NCBI GenBank assembly: GCA_021819035.1
Contig: JAKASL010000002.1
Location: 1-64,000, forward strand
Length of the DNA stretch: 64,000 bases
From: an archaeon
GTDB taxonomy: Archaea; Thermoproteota; Nitrososphaeria; Nitrososphaerales; Gagatemarchaeaceae
Direction: 5' to 3'
Shown: piece by piece, positions 3,282-50,905 of the stretch
Position numbering within the stretch: position 1 is the stretch's first letter
How the letters are laid out: every line of letters starts with the position of its first letter
Made by a program: the position numbers and the translations under genes
The notes under the pieces: model-generated
Seen by the model: only the letters and a program-made list of their open reading frames with translations
What the model was told of the DNA's origin: nothing
Database searches by the model: none

Positions 3282-6200
3282 TCAGCTCATGTAGAGGTCG
3301 ATCATACCGGTCCCCAACGGTATCGGGAGCCCGACGATGACGTTCTCCGTGACCCCCTTGAGGTCTTCGACCTCGCCCTTGACTGCGGCCTCGGCGAGGG
3401 TAGGGACTGTGATCTCGAAGGCCGCCCTGGCTAGGACGCTGCTCTTTGTCCCGGCGATGCCGTGCCTGCCTATCTGCTGGATGTATCCCTTTGACGTCAT
3501 CAGGTCCGCCACAAGGAAGATGTGGCGGATGTCTACCTCCAGCCCCTGCTCGTCCAAGGTGCTCATCAACTCCCTCACGAGGGTGGCGCGGGCCGCCTCG
3601 ATCCCGAGGACCTGGGCGACCTCGTGGACGTTGTTGGTATAGACCTTGCTCGGGTCCACCCCCTGGATCTGCACGACCTTACCTAGGTTCGACCCCGAGG
3701 TCTGTATGAACCACTCCTCTCCTTCCTTTACCACTGTGACCCGGGTGATTCCTGGGATCCCCTTCAGCTTCATGTTGAGGATCTTGTTCCTGAGCGTGAA
3801 CAGGGCAGAGAGGTCTGCCTCGGGCATGCTGACGTGGATGATGTTCGGGTTCCTCTTGTCCTGTTGGACCTTCCGCTTCCCTGTCTCTATCACCTTGGCT
3901 ATCTCCTCCGGGCTCGTGTCCCTGTCGTTCATCATCTCAGGGCTGAGGTGGAGCTTGATCCCCTCGGTGGGGTCGACCTCGCTGAAGGCGACGACGTTAC
4001 CGACCTTCGTGAAGAGTATCTCCTTCGCCACCTTGACCGCCTTCTCGTTCTGGGCGGCGTAGTCCTTGGTAAGGTAGATGTCCATGGACGGTTTAGCCGG
4101 GATCTTGCGGGCGTCAACCAGCTCCATGAGCCTCGGCAACCCCAGGGTGACGTCCCTTTCGCGGACGCCTGCGAAGTGGAATGTCCTCAGGGTCATCTGG
4201 GTGCCAGGTTCTCCTATTGACTGGGCGGCGACGATGCCTGACGCTTCGCCAGGTTCGACCCTCGAGTAGTCGAGGGCCTCGGCCACCCTTTCCATTGACT
4301 CTTTGAGACCTTCGTCCGTGAGATGGGAGTTCCCGAGCTTTTCATTCAGCTCCTTGACCAGCCTTTCATTTAGCAGGGGCTGGTCCTTCTTCAAGAGCCT
4401 CTCCAGCTCCTCCTCGCTGGTCTTGGTCTTCGACTTGTGCGAGAGCTCCTCGGTCTCGATCAGCCTGTCCAGGTTGATTGGGCGGCCGTGGTCGCTCTTG
4501 GCAGGGTCGACGCCGTCCTCTCCGTAGATGAACTGTATGATATGGCCGTGGGGGTCTCTCACGGTGAGGTCGTACTCGACCTTGAGGTGCTCGAGGGCGT
4601 TGACCAGCCTCCTCTGCATGTAACCGCTCTGCTGCGTCCTGACCGCGGTGTCCACGAGGCCCTCGCGTCCTCCCATGGCGTGGAAGAAGAACTCGGTCGG
4701 AGAGAGGCCGTCTCTGTAGTTGCTCTTGACGAACCCCTTGGCAGTGGGGGACGGGTCGTTCCAGGCGAAGTGGCTCAGCGCCCTCCCCTTCAGGCCGTGG
4801 CTGATTCTCTTGCCGCGGACTGACTGCTGCCCCAGCGCCGCGGTCATCTGGCCGACGTTGAGGCTCGACCCCCTGGCACCTGTCCTTGCCATTATCATGC
4901 CGGAGTTCTCTGCGGGGAAGGCCCTGTCAGCTATCCTCCCTGCCTTGTCCCTCGCCTTCGCGAGCTCGTTGACTATGTACGCCTCGAGGGTGTCCTCTGC
5001 CGAGAGGCCCCTGGTGAGCTGAAGCGAGCCTGCCTTGTACTTCTTCTGGAGGTCGGTGACGCTGGCATAGGCTTCGTCGAGCGCATCGGTGATCCCCTTC
5101 TTTGCCTCGGTAGGGAGCTCGAGCTCGTTGAACCCGTAGGTGAAGCCCCTGCGGGTGAGGAAGGTCTTGAGCACCTTCAGTATCGAGTTGAGGAAGTTGC
5201 GGGCCTCCTCGTTGCCGTAGTCCTTGGCGATCCTGTGCAGCAGGGAGTCCGGTTCCTCGGCCCCTATTACCGCCTTGTCGACGACCCCCGAGATCAGCTC
5301 GCCGTCCCGTATTACCACGTCGTTGGTGGCCCCGGTCCGCTGGGCTTTGGCCCACTTCGAAGTGAGGACGTAGTTCATCCCTTCGGGGATAAAGAGGGAG
5401 AAGAGTTGCTTCCCGGTGTAAGCGGGGTGCGCCCCCTTCACCGCCGGCTCGGGGAGGTCCCCGACGTAGTCCCCGACCAATGCGAGGTTAGAGAACTCCC
5501 CCGTGGTGAGGGTGGTCTCGTCCCGCGTGAGCATGAACGCTCCGGTGATGAAGTCCCTGATCCCTCCGATGATGGGCCCTCCGTACCTGGGCGAAATTAT
5601 CTGGTCCTGCACCCTCATCAGCATGAGCGCTTCGGACCTTGATTCTTCGCTCTGTGGGACGTGGAGGTTCATCTCGTCCCCGTCGAAGTCGGCGTTGTAG
5701 GGTGGGCAGACCGAGGGGTGGAGCCTGAAGGTTCTGAACGGCAGGACACGGACGAAGTGCGCCATGACGGACATCCTGTGGAGGGACGGTTGTCTGTTGA
5801 AGAGCACGATGTCACCGTCCATCAGGTGCCTTTCGACGATGTATCCTGGGACGAGGGAGTCGGCCAGCGCCTTCCTGTCGCTGGCGAAGTCCAACCTGAT
5901 CTTCACCCCGTCTGGCCTTATGACGTAGTTGGCACCGGGGTGCTCGAAGGGGCCCCTGTTCACGAGTGCCTTCAGGTGTTCGATGTTGAAAGGAGAGACC
6001 TTCTCTGGTATCGTGAGCTTCTTCGCCACCTCGAACGGCACCCCCACTTCGCCTATGTCGAGGCTGGGGTCGGGGCTGATCACAGTGCGGCTGGAGAAGT
6101 CTACCCTCTTCCCCGACAGCGACCCCCTGAACCTCCCCTCCTTCCCCTTCAGCCGCTGGCTGAGCGTCTTCAGCGGCCTCCCAGACCTGTGGTGTGCCTG

Positions 6201-24061: not shown

Positions 24062-24146
24062 GCGGGGGTCGCCCAGCCTGGTCAACGGCGCGAGGCTTAG
24101 GACCTCGTCCCTTAGGGGTTCGTGGGTTCGAATCCCACCCCCCGCA
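24062..24146 (+). tRNA. tRNA-Leu (anticodon UAG)
   Basis: The acceptor stem pairs GCGGGGG (24062-24068) with CCCCCGC (24139-24145), with discriminator A at 24146. The anticodon loop CTTAGGA sits between GAGG and CCTC, giving anticodon TAG. A long variable arm (TCCCTTAGGGG region) marks a class II tRNA. The T arm is GTGGG-TTCGAAT-CCCAC. There is no intron and no encoded CCA end. Confidence 0.95.
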
Positions 24147-46432: not shown

Positions 46433-47319
46433 TTGCGCCGGCGGGCTGAATGCCCGTTCTGCGGAGCCAGGGCGGTAGCCTAGAGCATCGGGACGACGTC
46501 GTCGACATCGGCCAAGCAGACCGGGGCTATGGCCACGGTTGTCGCGCCCGGTCTCTGAGATCAGGGAGTTGCGGCGATGGACCAGGACTTCAGCCGGACC
46601 TACGGCAGCCGGAGACACGTCCCCGACCGCGTGCCTTGGCCACCGTCCCAGTGTTCAGTCGCTCCCTCTCCTCGCTCACGCCCCTGAAGCACGTCTCACG
46701 AGAAGTTTCGGGGCGTAACGGCTCCGCCATAACCAGCGTTCAAAGACGGCCCCTCCCGGTAGGACCGCCGACGCCGGTCCTCTGCGCAATTTGCCGATGC
46801 TCTGGCCCGGCTCGTTCGGACGTAGCTGCGCGTGGACTAGGTTGCAGGGGCGGAACGTGTTGGCCGTTGACAACACAAGGACGTGTGGGGCGAGAGGTTG
46901 AGGGGTGCCGCCCGGCAGCCCGGAGAAGTTCCGCTGCCGACCGAAGATAGGCTGTCGTGCCTCAACTCAGAGTTGAGCGCCGAGCCGCTTCCTTCGCGTA
47001 GGGGGGCCAATTTTCCCCCCGTCAGACGCTCTCCAGAGCATGCCAGGCATTGGTCGGTGGAACCGCATCGGCTTCAGGAGAAGGTATCCGCCCCGCGAGC
47101 CCTCCCGCCTCCTCGCAGCGTGAGGGACATTCCCCCTATACGGGCGCCTGAACAACAGTAACCGTCGTTTTCAGCGCCTTTAGGTTGTCATGCCTGTGGA
47201 AGATGGGGGGCACTGATATGTACCACAGAGGCATCCCCTCTCATTGCCCCCCTTCTGCCCCGAAACTCCCACTTTCGACCGGATGGCACCCCCTGTATGA
47301 CCGGATATCGAAGGGGAGA
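46433..47319. other. Gene-free stretch of about 890 bases left of the mobile element
   Basis: Several open frames of 60 to 166 codons exist on both strands, but none shows a domain, promoter or neighbour-like codon use. Two GC-rich hairpins are present: G6...C6 at 47001-47020, and a two-tier hairpin at 47205-47252. Part may be the original upstream region of the gene at 50045, now separated from it by the element. Confidence 0.45.
47205..47252. other. Two-tier inverted repeat, candidate structured RNA or terminator
   Basis: The outer arms GGGGGGCA (47205-47212) and TGCCCCCC (47245-47252) pair perfectly. Inside the 32-base loop, AGAGG (47227-47231) pairs with CCTCT (47237-47241). The nested shape is more than a simple terminator. 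It lies 68 bases left of the mobile element's target duplication. Confidence 0.4.
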
Positions 47320-47328
47320 GACTTGCTA
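47320..47328 (+). repeat. Left target-site duplication GACTTGCTA
   Basis: This 9-bp direct repeat abuts the left terminal repeat at 47329. An identical copy abuts the right terminal repeat at 49995-50003. Confidence 0.8.
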
Positions 47329-48563
47329 GGGTGTGGGACATAAGTCTCTCTCCCCGTTCTTAGTCGCGTTCTTCGAATAGGGGCTACCATATCATGATAC
47401 CCTTTCAGTATGGTGCAGGCCTCCCCACACAGGCGGTTAAATCACGTTTCTTCTTCCTCTCTCGATCCGTCGGTCGATGGTCGTCAGGGACGAGGGCATC
47501 CAGAAGAAGCTCAGGGAGATAGACGAGCACATCAGGAAGGAGTACGTCGAGAGCCATCCCAAGGAGGAGAGGGACTGGAGGACATACGAGCAGCAGTTCT
47601 CCAGGAGGATAAAGGAGGCGATGAGGGCCCTCGACCCGCTCGTCCACGAGGCAGTGTCCACGATCAGGGTCTCCCAGCCCAGGTTCGGGAGGCCGGACTC
47701 CCTCACCCTCGAGCAGAAGGTCAAGCTCCTCCTGATCAAGCAGCTTGCGGGTGAGTCCAACAGGATGCACGCCAGCATGCTGGACATCTACTCCATGCTC
47801 TGAGGCATCGACGTCTCCTACAAGACCGTGGAACGATTGTACTCCGACGAGGAGGTGGCGACGGCCCTCCACAACCTGCACGCCCTCCTCCTGAAGAAGA
47901 AAGGGGTCGGCGAGAAGGAGGGGAGCGACGCCTCCGGGGACGGGACCGGGTACTCGCTGACGACCTCGAAGCATTACGAGAGCGTCACCAGGGAGCTGAA
48001 GGACATGGCCAAGGAAGAGCAAGGGCGGCGGCAGGAGGGACGCGAATCGTCGTCGCCACAACAGCCGCCCAAAGAGGAGACGAAGAAGCGCGCCTTCGCA
48101 TACTCCTTCAGGCTGATGGACCTCCCCACCAGGATGTACCTCGCCTACGGCTCGAGCCTGAAATCGGAGAAGGAGGCCTTCGACCGCGCCATGAAGATGC
48201 TCTCCAGGATCGATGGCGTGACGCTCGGCTCGGTCAGGCTGGACAGGTATTACGGCACGCTGGGGTACCTGGACCTCTTCGGGCGCGAGACCAAGGTCTG
48301 CATCATACCCAGGAGCAACGCCACCCTGATCGGTTCCTGGAGGTGGAAGGAGGCCATGATAGACTTCGTGAAGAACGCGGTGAAGTACCTGGAGCAGTAT
48401 TACCGGCGCGAGAGCTCGGAGTCAGGGTTCGCAGCCGACAAGAAGACGCTCGGGTGGTCGGTCGCCCGGAGGAGGGAGGACAGGATAGACTGCGCACAGT
48501 TCTTCACGGGGCTCTGGCACAACCTGTTCAACCTCTCGACCCTCTGACTTCTGTCCCACACCC
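47329..48563 (+). mobile_element. Insertion sequence, left part of the composite element
   Basis: The left terminal repeat is 47329-47344 and the right is 48548-48563; they match as inverted repeats at 15 of 16 positions. The single transposase frame ends one base before the right repeat. Length is about 1235 bp. No duplication flanks this unit alone. Confidence 0.8.
47477..48547 (+). pseudogene. Transposase interrupted by one in-frame TGA
   Basis: The frame from ATG 47477 stays in phase to the stop at 48545-48547, broken only by TGA at 47801-47803. Joined, it encodes about 355 residues. The N-terminal part is helical (DEHIRKEYVESHPKEERDWR...). After the break come GIDVSYKTVERLYSDEEV and a catalytic-type domain with FRLMDLPTRMYLAYG, SVRLDRYYGTLGYLDLFG, NATLIGSWRWK and RREDRIDCAQFFTGLWHNLF. 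This matches, from memory, archaeal ISNCY-group transposases with acidic DDE-like residues. Relatives have a small residue (Ser or Gly) at the TGA position. Confidence 0.85.
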
Positions 48564-48576
48564 CCGCGGAGAGCAA

Positions 48577-48597
48577 CTCTTATATCATTCCTGATAT
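48577..48597 (+). promoter_or_regulatory. Cargo promoter with PadR-type palindrome
   Basis: TATA-like CTCTTATATC (48577-48586) overlaps the perfect inverted repeat ATATCA-TTCC-TGATAT (48582-48597). A second TATA-like element GATATAATC follows at 48601-48609. The coding start is at 48618. A dimeric repressor, plausibly the PadR encoded two genes on, would block TATA binding here. Confidence 0.55.
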
Positions 48598-48617
48598 GAG
48601 AGATATAATCAGAGGCG

Positions 48618-48803
48618 ATGCAAAACATGCAAAGATACGGATGGGGCGGCCAGTGCGGCTGCAACTGCTCCGGGCCGGGTTATTTTCGGCCGAGGAGCAG
48701 GGACGAAGCGGTGGAGGAGCTGGAGGACTACAAGGCGGGCCTGGAGTCTGAGATAACCGCCTTGGAGAAGAGGATCCAGTCGCTCAAGGAAAAGAAGGAG
48801 TAG
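48618..48803 (+). CDS. Small Cys-motif plus coiled-coil protein (DUF5320-like)
   Basis: The 61-residue product begins with a Gly/Cys-rich patch (GGQCGCNCSGPG) and ends in a coiled coil (LEDYKAGLESEITALEKRIQ). This layout resembles the small DUF5320-type proteins found near PadR and metal-cluster genes in anaerobes and archaea. It is the first cargo gene, just downstream of the palindromic promoter, and is followed after 6 bases by padR. Confidence 0.7.
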   Translation: MQNMQRYGWGGQCGCNCSGPGYFRPRSRDEAVEELEDYKAGLESEITALEKRIQSLKEKKE

Positions 48804-48809
48804 AGGGCG

Positions 48810-49169
48810 ATGCCGGGAGGATGGTGCAGGTGCGGTCCCTTCAGGGTGAACGTCGTGCCCCAGGGCATGCTGAAGCCCTACATCCTCCGGCTGCTCTCCG
48901 AGAGGCCGATGCACGGCTTCGAGATGATGGAGGAGATATTCCAGCGCACGAAGGGGATGTGGCGGCCTGGGCCCTCTGCGGTCTATCCTACACTCGTGTG
49001 GCTGGAAGAGAAGGGCTACATCGAACAAACGCGGAGCGAGGCGAAGGGGGAGAAGGCAAGGAGGCCGTTCAGGATCACGGCGAAGGGGAAGGAGGCGCTG
49101 AAGGACTACGACAAGTTCAGGGGCGAGTGGCTCGAGGGCGTCTCGCAACTCAGGGAGATGTGGTGGTGA
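48810..49169 (+). CDS. PadR-family regulator with an N-terminal Cys motif
   Basis: The 119-residue product is a compact PadR: ILRLLSERPMHGFEMMEEIFQRT, RPGPSAVYPTLVWLEEKGYIEQ, a basic wing (KARRPFRITAKGKEAL) and a short dimerisation helix. It starts with MPGGWCRCGPF, echoing the GGxCxC patch of the upstream protein, which suggests metal or redox input. It probably autoregulates through the palindrome at 48582-48597. Confidence 0.88.
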   Translation: MPGGWCRCGPFRVNVVPQGMLKPYILRLLSERPMHGFEMMEEIFQRTKGMWRPGPSAVYPTLVWLEEKGYIEQTRSEAKGEKARRPFRITAKGKEALKDYDKFRGEWLEGVSQLREMWW

Positions 49170-49252
49170 CATGGGCAAGACTAGGGGTGGAGCACTGCTT
49201 CTGCTGCTCGCACTGCGCTGACAGTTATCAGAAGGACAAGGGAGCGAACTGA
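49163..49252 (+). CDS. Truncated TRASH-type metal-binding ORF
   Basis: A short frame from GTG 49163, overlapping the padR stop, ends with HCFCCSHCADSYQKDKGAN. The FCCxxCAD part equals the C-terminal half of a TRASH domain, as in FCCKGCADHHEK of the gene at 49369. The N-terminal CxxC half is missing. It is either a degraded duplicate or a minimal metal-binding peptide. Confidence 0.45.
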   Translation: MVTWARLGVEHCFCCSHCADSYQKDKGAN

Positions 49253-49255
49253 CCG

Positions 49256-49372
49256 ATGGAACCGCCGATCGACCTGACAGAACTCGGCGGACGGCTGAGC
49301 AGGGCCTTCCCCAGCCTCGTTACGCTATCCAATCGTGCCAGCGTCATAACCGTCATGGGCAAGTCAAGGTGA
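49256..49372 (+). CDS. 38-residue ORF coupled to the TRASH gene
   Basis: The ATG at 49256 opens a frame encoding MEPPIDLTELGGRLSRAF and a further 20 residues, ending with a TGA that overlaps the next gene's GTG (GTGA). No family is recognised. The coupling and position support translation, but it could be a remnant. Confidence 0.4.
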   Translation: MEPPIDLTELGGRLSRAFPSLVTLSNRASVITVMGKSR

Positions 49373-49638
49373 CCTCAAACGGGGTGGTCGAGGGGGCTGG
49401 GCCAGCCGCGGAAAAGGTGAGGGCTATTCGTGAAGAACACATCGGAGAGCAGCCGTTTGCGCGCCGTGCGTCGAATTCGGCCCCGCAGAAAGTAGCGACG
49501 AACACGCGCAACCCTTTCAGGTGTCAGCACTGCGGGCTTCGCCTGACGGCCGGGCGCGTCTACAGAAGGACAATCGGCGGCTCGGTTCTGCTGTTCTGCT
49601 GCAAGGGATGTGCGGACCATCATGAGAAGGGTTGTTGA
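49369..49638 (+). CDS. TRASH-domain metal-binding protein
   Basis: The 89-residue product has a disordered N-terminal half and a C-terminal treble-clef-like metal site: CQHCG, then after 21 residues CCKGC. Counted from the second cysteine this is C-x21-C-x3-C, matching the TRASH pattern (C-x19-22-C-x3-C) of heavy-metal sensing and trafficking proteins, followed by ADHHEKGC. It is the last cargo gene; the MITE-like end begins 14 bases later. The metal is not determinable from sequence. Confidence 0.75.
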   Translation: MTSNGVVEGAGPAAEKVRAIREEHIGEQPFARRASNSAPQKVATNTRNPFRCQHCGLRLTAGRVYRRTIGGSVLLFCCKGCADHHEKGC

Positions 49639-49652
49639 ATACAGGCTAGATG

Positions 49653-49994
49653 GGGTGTGGGACAAAACTGCCCCTTCCAGAGCTACCAAGGCGTCCGGAG
49701 GGCGGTTCGAGCCACTCCGCCCGGTCCGGGCGACCGACGCATTTCGACCAGGGGAGGAATGGTCCTCCTCACACCCTCACTTGAGCGGGCTTGGATGCGG
49801 GAGGGACCTGAATCCCACGTTCGGCAAACGGGAACTCGTCCGGAACCTGAGGAATAAAGGAATCACGAGGTAAGGCCCTTGTGGCGACCAATCCTTCATG
49901 ACGCTGTCAACCTTTTCGCACCAGAGTGTCCTTGATAGGGATCGTCTCTTATCATTCATAAGAGGTGCGGGCGGCCGAGTTTTGTCCCACACCC
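49653..49994 (+). mobile_element. MITE-like unit, right part of the composite element
   Basis: The 17-base inverted repeats GGGTGTGGGACAAAACT at 49653-49669 and 49978-49994 match perfectly. The 342-bp unit has no supported gene. It shares the first 12 bases of its ends with the IS at 47329-48563, so the same transposase could act on it. No target duplication flanks this unit alone. Confidence 0.8.
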
Positions 49995-50003
49995 GACTTG
50001 CTA
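49995..50003 (+). repeat. Right target-site duplication GACTTGCTA
   Basis: This is the identical copy of 47320-47328, directly after the outer right terminal repeat. It lies 41 bases before the start of the gene at 50045. Confidence 0.8.
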
Positions 50004-50044
50004 ACAAAACTTTTAGCCTCCGGTAGCGGTTTTCGCCATTTGTA

Positions 50045-50905
50045 ATGCATCCCCAGCTCAAGACATTGAGCATCCTTTCGGTCCTCATGATCATAATCGT
50101 CGCGCTGGGCCTTGCATTCACCCCGATAGGGCTGGATGGAACGTCCCCGAGCCCGGGCAACCGGCAGGCCACTCAAACAAGTACCGGTCAGGGCCCCAGC
50201 CTCCTGATCAAGGCAGAGGGCACTGAAGCAGGAGAGACCTACGCGTCCATACAGCAAGGCGCGAATCTTTCTCGGTACCTTACGCCGATGTCGAGGCTGG
50301 AGTTCGTCGTTACTGTCATCGGACCCGGAGGTGTGGTAATCCCAGGCAGGACCCCGACATACAGCTTGTACACAAACTCTTCCGGAGAGGTCGAAGCGGA
50401 GCTGCCGCCGGGGAACTACTCAGTGCAAGCCGCAGGGTCGAACTTCTTCTTCAAGAGATACGTCCTCCTGAGGGAGAATCTCACCACTGCGCTCACCTTG
50501 AGAGAGCTGCCTCAAGCGGAAGCGGTCAGTACAGCCGTCGTGGTGAACCAGGACACCGCCAAGGGCGTTGAGAGCACGGGCACTATATATCTAGAGATAA
50601 GCGGGAGTTTCCGATACAGTCCGACTTCGGTCTATCAGCTGATAGGGACTAGGGGAGCCTACGCCCCCTCTCCATCGAACGTGACATTTTTCGGAACGAA
50701 CACAACGGGCTTTGGCGGAACCAGACCCGTACTGCTGAACAGCCCCTTGGTCACTATAAACGGGACCATCGAAGGATCATACACAGCACCCGGAGGAGCA
50801 TGGGTTGTGATGTCCCCGACGGCTCCTGTCCCAGCGCTACCCGATTCAGGGGTCGAACTTGTGTACTACGCGGCTAACTCTACGGTGAACTACATTGCCC
50901 ATTGA
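50045..50905 (+). CDS. Membrane-anchored extracellular protein, first gene of the MoxR/DUF58 cluster
   Basis: The 286-residue product has one N-terminal hydrophobic helix (LSILSVLMIIIVALGLAF), then an extracellular-looking domain rich in Gly, Ser and Thr with several N-x-S/T sites. A central segment reads YSLYTNSSGEVEAELPPGNY, like a carboxypeptidase-regulatory-type beta sandwich. The family is not recognised. It overlaps the next gene by 11 bases. The mobile element inserted about 40 bases upstream, so its original promoter region may have been displaced. Confidence 0.75.
   Translation: MHPQLKTLSILSVLMIIIVALGLAFTPIGLDGTSPSPGNRQATQTSTGQGPSLLIKAEGTEAGETYASIQQGANLSRYLTPMSRLEFVVTVIGPGGVVIPGRTPTYSLYTNSSGEVEAELPPGNYSVQAAGSNFFFKRYVLLRENLTTALTLRELPQAEAVSTAVVVNQDTAKGVESTGTIYLEISGSFRYSPTSVYQLIGTRGAYAPSPSNVTFFGTNTTGFGGTRPVLLNSPLVTINGTIEGSYTAPGGAWVVMSPTAPVPALPDSGVELVYYAANSTVNYIAH

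What the first reader, a model, noticed from the sequence alone, without database searches (positions are those of the whole stretch)
47320..50003. Composite transposon that moved cargo as one unit, proven by outer 9-bp duplication
Seen directly: four copies of the terminal tip GGGTGTGGGACA delimit an IS (47329-48563) and a MITE-like unit (49653-49994). Perfect 9-bp direct repeats GACTTGCTA occur only outside the outermost pair, at 47320-47328 and 49995-50003. Neither inner unit has matching flanks. The best reading is that the IS plus about 1.1 kb of cargo plus the MITE transposed together. Composite transposons using a MITE as one end are seldom described in archaea, and the cargo looks adaptive.
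Basis: seen in the sequence. Interest (0 to 1): 0.78.

Follow-up and report, generated by a model that had tools for sequence, protein, structure and literature searches.

The report
Archaeal transposon built from IS and MITE
A jumping gene and a short, gene-less relative of it landed on either side of a few genes in an archaeon and carried them to a new place as one unit; related genomes still show both the genes' home and the unoccupied landing site, so the move can be followed step by step, although the carried genes are now mostly broken.

Summary
Window 47329-49994 is a 2666-bp composite transposon: an IS5-like insertion sequence, 1089 bp of cargo and a 342-bp MITE, with a perfect 9-bp duplication (GACTTGCTA) only outside.

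Further evidence: (1) a congeneric genome, G024, has the empty site: the flanks join at one nonamer with one substitution and no gap. (2) Nine bp is the IS family's own duplication length: 16 of 28 homologue loci by script, one more by hand. (3) In relatives the cargo is part of an uninterrupted operon beside a sulfide:quinone-oxidoreductase-like gene, running through both inner breakpoints with no tip. (4) The own assembly holds no other copy of the cargo.

The 'adaptive cargo' remark is not supported: about 0.6 kb of the operon is deleted, one further gene is frameshifted and the transposase has a nonsense codon. PadR and a small ORF remain whole.

Composite transposons and MITE-bounded ones are known in bacteria. 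The asymmetric IS+MITE form in an archaeon, with home locus and empty target both readable, is the modest novelty. Limits: one empty-site genome; no donor carrying IS and MITE at the home locus was found.

The parts
47320..47328 (.). Left target-site duplication GACTTGCTA (9 bp)
   Evidence: Only two copies in the window; one copy, with one substitution, at the empty site of G024
47329..48563 (+). Insertion sequence, 1235 bp, IS5-like, forming the left end of the composite
   Evidence: Inverted tips 47329-47346 and 48546-48563; relatives with the same kind of tips and 9-bp duplications in G011 and in Ferroplasma and other archaea
47477..48547 (+). Transposase gene interrupted by one in-frame TGA at 47801-47803; the aligned Asp, Asp and Glu are retained
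   Evidence: the four intact homologues aligned have Ser at this place
48564..49652 (+). Cargo, 1089 bp, a relocated piece of an operon that is 1705-1706 bp between the same breakpoints in three relatives
   Evidence: 93% identity to L066, L068, L069, L070, L071 from 48564 on, and 92-93% to L066, L068, L069 up to 49652/3
48618..48803 (+). Small ORF, 61 aa, weak prefoldin/DUF5320-like match
   Evidence: below Pfam cut-offs; DNA conserved in the home operon
48810..49169 (+). PadR-family transcriptional regulator, 119 aa, intact
   Evidence: Pfam PF03551, E 9.4e-20
49183..49193 (.). Deletion junction: 616-617 bp of the home operon (a DF-family gene and a thioredoxin gene) missing here
49256..49638 (+). 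Lsm_C plus metal-binding-domain gene, frameshifted near 49360; the second half is the ORF 49369-49638
   Evidence: The home copy is one 127-aa ORF, Lsm_C E 1.1e-13; alignment
49653..49994 (.). MITE, 342 bp, no transposase, 17-bp perfect inverted tips, forming the right end of the composite
   Evidence: partial relatives in G024 (89% over 156 bp) and G018 (73% over 240 bp)
49995..50003 (.). Right target-site duplication GACTTGCTA (9 bp)

Best explanation
It is an asymmetric composite transposon. Inferred order of events: in a donor genome an IS inserted upstream of the PadR operon at CCGCGGAGA, and a MITE with compatible tips inserted downstream at GGCTAGATG, each making its own 9-bp duplication. 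A DDE transposase then paired the outermost tips (IS left, MITE right) instead of the two tips of one element, excised or copied everything between them and inserted it at GACTTGCTA, duplicating those 9 bp. The outer halves of the older duplications stayed behind, which is why the inner flanks no longer match. Decay, before or after the move, removed two genes of the operon, frameshifted a third and put a stop in the transposase, so the unit can no longer move on its own. Shown: target with and without the unit, home locus, breakpoints, duplication length. Inferred: the donor with both insertions, the transposase that acted, and cut-and-paste versus copying.
For: Outer 9 of 9 match, inner flanks unmatched. 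Empty site in G024 with one nonamer and gap-free alignment across it. The family's duplication is 9 bp: G011 copy GGGCCCGAT on both sides; exact 9-bp repeats in 16 of 28 homologue loci, lengths 7-10 tested. Cargo continuous with its home locus across the left breakpoint in L066, L068, L069, L070, L071 and, with a few bases' difference, L074 (250 bp of upstream DNA at 84-100%), and across the right one in L066, L068, L069 and L067. No core tip TGTGGGACA in any of 11 home-type loci and no exact tip anywhere in the genomes G013, G016, G028, G029, G030. The 9-mers predicted as older insertion sites stand once at the breakpoints of the uninterrupted home sequence: CCGCGGAGA exactly in L069 and L070, GGCTAGATG exactly in L066 and L068.
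Against: No genome was found in which the IS or the MITE sits at the home locus, nor a second copy of the composite. The empty site rests on one relative, whose left flank is only 76% alike over 814 bp and whose nonamer differs at one base. The home-locus witnesses are not independent: G016, G028 and G029 share 99.9% identical contigs, G013 and G030 are identical over the compared 606 bp. In four more distant relatives with the PadR gene (G033, G027, G004, G044) the 250 bp upstream of the home operon are not found next to it, so the breakpoint cannot be read there; in G035 it lies about 100 bp away. The own genome is 88% complete, so a home copy may lie in the missing part.
Confidence: 0.93

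Rival explanations
1. Replacement by recombination: a lone MITE (or IS) first inserted here and made the nonamer repeat; later an IS-cargo-MITE segment from elsewhere recombined into it through the shared MITE and tip, so the unit never transposed whole.
For: It would give the same final sequence; partial relatives of the MITE exist in G024 and G018, and 342 bp of MITE could serve for one crossover.
Against: The left crossover would have to fall inside the 12-18 bp tip shared by IS and MITE. The one relative with the site, G024, is empty.
Confidence: 0.04
2. Two unrelated insertions: IS and MITE inserted separately on either side of resident genes and the matching 9-mers are chance.
For: The inner ends are intact tips, as separate elements would have.
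Against: A chance match is about 8 in a million; G024 lacks the cargo as well as both elements at this site; the cargo belongs to an operon elsewhere in relatives.
Confidence: 0.01
3. A one-piece transposon with passenger genes and only the outer tips, into which a second IS or MITE inserted later to create the inner tips.
For: Passenger-gene IS elements are known (recalled).
Against: The inner junctions fall exactly where home-locus sequence begins and ends, and the inner units have no duplications of their own, which a later insertion would have made.
Confidence: 0.02

Closest known systems
Classical composite transposons (e.g. Tn5 with IS50; figure legend in PMC10969869, passages seen)
   Same: Two ends with compatible tips move the DNA between them; one end may be defective (IS50L of Tn5 has a nonsense mutation, as that legend says).
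   Different: Here one end is not an IS copy but a 342-bp MITE without a transposase gene, and the other is an IS with a nonsense codon.
TIME-COMP elements of Pseudomonas (PMC4133298, passages seen)
   Same: MITE-type elements mobilise genomic DNA between them as a composite-like unit with a target duplication (5 bp there), shown by trap plasmid.
   Different: Both ends are MITEs of Tn3 origin and 5 bp are duplicated; here one end is a full-length IS, the family is IS5-like and 9 bp are duplicated; no experiment here.
MITE-flanked class 1 integrons of Acinetobacter (PMC3934969 passages; PMC6382973 passages)
   Same: MITEs as ends of a composite-like unit, inferred from a 5-bp target duplication.
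   Different: Two copies of the same MITE; bacterial; no IS end.
The IS copies L100-L106 of Ferroplasma acidarmanus Fer1 (NC_021592)
   Same: Same tip GGGTGTGGGACA, same 9-bp duplication, 55% transposase identity to the G011 copy.
   Different: They were seen as single IS copies; whether any forms a composite, and their ISfinder names, were not examined.

Membership tests
Composite transposon | Two compatible, inverted terminal tips at the outer ends | tested here: met
   47329+ and 49983-; 18 bp at 89%
Composite transposon | Target duplication only outside the whole unit, of the family's usual length | tested here: met
   9 of 9 outside, 2 and 5 of 9 for the single units; family length 9 bp
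Composite transposon | Empty target site in a relative | tested here: met
   G024, one nonamer with one substitution; only one such genome
Composite transposon | Central DNA taken from another locus | tested here: met
   Home operon continuous across both breakpoints in relatives
Composite transposon | Both ends are IS copies | tested here: not met
   Right end is a 342-bp MITE with no transposase gene; beyond the tips its resemblances to the IS are 18 bases or shorter. It works like a composite transposon; it is not the two-IS form
Composite transposon | Moves as a unit in an experiment | not testable with these tools
   No bench assay; the transposase here carries a stop codon
MITE | Short, no transposase, tips matching an autonomous element | tested here: met
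   342 bp, tips of the IS
MITE | Several copies in the genome | tested here: not met
   One copy in its own genome; partial relatives in G024 and G018, a 45-bp match in G009
IS5 family | Transposase matches the family model above its curated cut-off | tested here: not met
   NCBIfam transpos_IS5_2 is the only transposase model hit by three intact homologues (E 1.4e-9 to 7.9e-6), at 25.5-37.8 bits against a cut-off of 140; Pfam DDE_Tnp_1 21.1 bits against 23 for one of the three. Hence 'IS5-like'
IS5 family | DDE catalytic triad | tested here: inconclusive
   Asp (DGTG), Asp (RLDRYY) and Glu (SESGF) conserved in alignment A2; their catalytic role is inferred

The most novel reading that the evidence does not exclude
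In these archaea a MITE serves as a ready-made second end for its parent-type IS: one IS next to one MITE suffices to lift host genes. The mechanism moved the PadR regulator out of a sulfur/metal redox operon that the genome then lost, making IS-MITE pairs a gene-relocation route in Nitrososphaerota that two-IS searches would miss.
Probability: 0.25. Interest if true: 0.55.

Novelty: new variant of a known kind. Interest (0 to 1): 0.42.

Why it matters
A composite transposon is often inferred from its structure and an outer duplication alone. Here the home locus of the cargo, the landing site without the unit and the family's duplication length can all be read in natural genomes, so one past transposition is reconstructed almost to the base. 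It indicates that a MITE can act as one end together with an IS in an archaeon, so searches that require two IS copies will miss such gene movement. The practical weight is limited: the unit was found once in the genomes searched and is now broken.

Tried and rejected
MITE as RNA gene or tRNA: no Rfam match at E up to 1 in 46500-50200; the only tRNA of the window is at 24062. The MITE folds better than 100 shuffles (z -3.2), which its inverted tips alone may explain.

Tips as a guide to other copies: in 101 genomes the exact tip has 20 places in 12 genomes, but the reversed control has 10 in 10, so lone tips elsewhere were not interpreted.

Excision scar or resident home copy in the own genome: not found. 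DNA of the home region (L066:4000-11000) matched the own genome at the window cargo and at 8 places whose matching parts lie outside the cargo operon and its SQR gene. G024's SQR region (L067:560-9000) matches the own genome only past the MITE fragment (C1:23915-27506), besides the MITE itself and one 65-bp match. The SQR protein finds one 29% match. The genome is 88% complete, so this is not decisive.

Viral carriers: no relative of the transposase and no exact IS-cargo junction in viral contigs. The cap for metagenome contigs is 0.

Home contig of G016 as a circular plasmid: no terminal overlap of 20-399 bases; not pursued.

Reading the TGA as a special sense codon: rejected; the intact homologues have serine there and G011 has TCG.

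G011 copy as a working reference: its gene is split by an insertion and the second aligned Asp is Gly.

Dropped or uneven rows: one search used 28 of the 44 loci (those with longer matches); 12 of the 28 gave no pair of ends, among them L090, the G011 copy, read by hand. One search used 15 loci. The 606-bp comparison has 11 rows that are not independent. G013 and G028 end at contig ends before the right breakpoint, G024 before the left one.
Full report
OBSERVATION. Window 47329-49994 holds four exact copies of GGGTGTGGGACA in the order +, -, +, -, delimiting an IS (47329-48563, 1235 bp) and a MITE (49653-49994, 342 bp) with 1089 bp between them. GACTTGCTA occurs only at 47320-47328 and 49995-50003. 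The four 9-mers beside the tips are GACTTGCTA, CCGCGGAGA, GGCTAGATG and GACTTGCTA; only the outer pair agrees, 9 of 9, the other five pairs agreeing in 2 or 5 of 9. Equal random 9-mer pairs occur in 16 of 2,000,000 draws from the window.

THE IS. Its frame 47477-48547 is a 356-codon transposase gene broken by one TGA at 47801-47803, where the four intact homologues aligned have serine. The closest copy found is in a congeneric genome, G011, at 86% amino-acid identity over the C-terminal 247 residues. That copy is split by an insertion of about 0.9 kb and is flanked by a perfect 9-bp repeat, GGGCCCGAT. The named-genome scan gave 44 loci: 22 titled Thermoplasmata, Thermoplasmatota or Thermoplasmatales, 7 Ferroplasma acidarmanus Fer1, 5 Thaumarchaeota or Nitrososphaerota, 5 'archaeon', 5 of the methanogen/ANME kind. 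Of the 28 I examined, 16 have recognisable ends; in all 16 the best flank is an exact 9-bp repeat (lengths 7-10 tested) and both tips contain TGTGGGACA, the first three bases varying. The only transposase model hit by three intact members is NCBIfam IS5_2, far below its cut-off, hence IS5-like. In the own genome there are two other pieces: a fragment beside an IS1182/IS110-like gene (C1, L009, below both cut-offs) and a short relic (C3, L010). The own-genome searches found no intact transposase of this kind.

THE MITE. It has 17-bp perfect inverted tips, no transposase and no Rfam match. Relatives occur in G024 (156 bp at 89%) and G018 (240 bp at 73%), each partial, plus a 45-bp match in G009. 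So it belongs to a small dispersed family in the genus, but it is single-copy in its own genome, unlike a typical MITE.

EMPTY SITE. The ORF right of the unit (50045-50905) has an 88% identical counterpart in G024. There the sequence reads GGAGGCTTGCTAACAAAACTTTTAGCC. Aligned to the window's two flanks joined with one nonamer, it runs across the nonamer and the right flank without a gap, with one substitution in the nonamer (GGCTTGCTA). The right flank is 90% identical over 1504 bp, the non-coding left one 76% over 814 bp, so one change in nine bases is unremarkable. Of the 101 genomes searched with this ORF, 15 including the own one match; apart from G024 the others are at 26-37% identity.

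HOME LOCUS. The cargo DNA matches 20 of 101 genomes, the own one included, many only in short pieces. In G016, G029, G030, G013 and G028 the match begins exactly at 48564; in G016, G029 and G030 it ends at 49652/3. Beyond these points the relatives continue with other sequence: on the left ...AAAGTCTTGGCGAGA|CCGCGG(A/G)..., on the right ...GGCTAGATGG|atatgcgtatatacg..., with no tip. The 250 bp upstream of the left breakpoint in G016 stand directly before the cargo in G029, G030, G013 and G028 (96-100%) and, five bases off, in G022 (84%); in G035 they lie about 100 bp away, and in G033, G027, G004 and G044 they are not found beside it, so those four say nothing about the breakpoint. None of these 11 loci holds TGTGGGACA. 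G024 is continuous on the right. The home operon in G016 reads: small ORF, PadR, a DF-family protein (NF049942), a Thioredoxin_3 protein, an Lsm_C plus metal-domain protein, then a pyridine-nucleotide-disulphide oxidoreductase whose best NCBIfam match, below cut-off, is a sulfide:quinone reductase model; an ArsR gene is divergent on the other side. So the inner breakpoints are where an IS and a MITE would have inserted into an intact operon. The witnesses are not independent: G016, G028 and G029 share contigs 99.9% identical over 9-30 kb, and G013 and G030 are identical over the compared stretch. That leaves three haplotypes on the left (G016 type, G030 type, G022) and three on the right (G016 type, G030, G024).

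DECAY. Between the same breakpoints the home operon is 1705-1706 bp and the cargo 1089 bp. The missing part holds the DF-family and thioredoxin genes; the Lsm_C/metal-domain gene is frameshifted near 49360. The small ORF and PadR are whole. Nothing found here supports an adaptive role of the cargo today; whether it had one when it moved cannot be told.

WHERE THE DONOR WAS. The own assembly shows no second copy of the cargo and no close SQR gene. In G024 the SQR region ends at a MITE tip followed by chromosome that in the own genome lies at C1:23915-27506 without that region. Either the own lineage lost the home region or it received the composite from another archaeon; the cargo is equally far (93.7%) from both home haplotypes in the 606-bp comparison. 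The assembly is 88% complete, so absence is not proof.

MECHANISM. Two older insertions bracketed part of the operon; a transposase then used the outermost tips and inserted the whole unit with the family's 9-bp duplication. The target with and without the unit, the home locus and the duplication length are shown; the intermediate with IS and MITE at the home locus, the transposase that acted and the chemistry (cut-and-paste or copying) are inferred. Recombination of a lone resident MITE with an IS-cargo-MITE donor is the rival I rate highest (0.04); it would need a crossover inside an 18-bp tip.

LITERATURE. Six searches of the held open library. Seen in passages: MITE-bounded composite units in bacteria, TIME-COMP (PMC4133298) and MITE-flanked integrons in Acinetobacter (PMC3934969, PMC6382973); a review that lists archaeal MITEs and defines composites as two IS around genes, the passages with 'composite' not touching archaea (PMC10969869); a possible ISH4 composite in Halobacterium (PMC7193027, one passage); and, only as a reference title, constructed composite transposons for halophilic Archaea (in PMC3235422). 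PMC2266710 was looked up for ISFac names (passages) and concerns IS4-related families. The other listed papers, PMC13367494 among them, were seen only in the listings. None of these passages described an IS-plus-MITE composite in an archaeon; subscription papers and ISfinder were not available, so this is no proof of priority.

VERDICT. A real, well-documented composite transposon of an unusual asymmetric build. The kind is known; the variant, and the completeness of the natural record, are of moderate interest.

Noticed in passing
L067 (G024:C70) 4916-5068; own C1:27506: In G024 a truncated MITE sits where synteny with the own genome (C1:23915-27506) breaks and the SQR/home-operon region begins, so the same MITE family marks a second rearrangement near the cargo's home locus.
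   Followed up: partly
L066/L086/L087 (G016:C3) against L088/L089/L071 (G028:C19) and L068 (G029:C136): Species-level genomes share contigs 99.9% identical over 9-30 kb that carry the home operon: either recent shared mobile DNA or mis-binned contigs.
   Followed up: partly
L009 2268-2770 (own C1:59267 onward): A second copy of this IS type has only its left end and N-terminal part; an IS1182/IS110-like transposase gene lies just beyond.
   Followed up: partly
L010 2245-2480 (own C3:962416): Short relic: a 61-bp match to the IS right part, preceded by sequence that by eye resembles the IS left end; possibly an internal-deletion derivative.
   Followed up: no
L038 3350-5490 (G011:C7): The closest IS copy is split by an insertion of about 0.9 kb with a transposase-like ORF (recognised by eye, not tested) but keeps its perfect 9-bp duplication GGGCCCGAT.
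   Followed up: partly
L067 1-577 and 474-1792 against L066: G024 and G016 are 98% alike over 485 bp of the home operon but 82% over the adjoining SQR region, suggesting exchange within the genus; G024's own Lsm_C/metal-domain gene also lacks about 240 bp.
   Followed up: no
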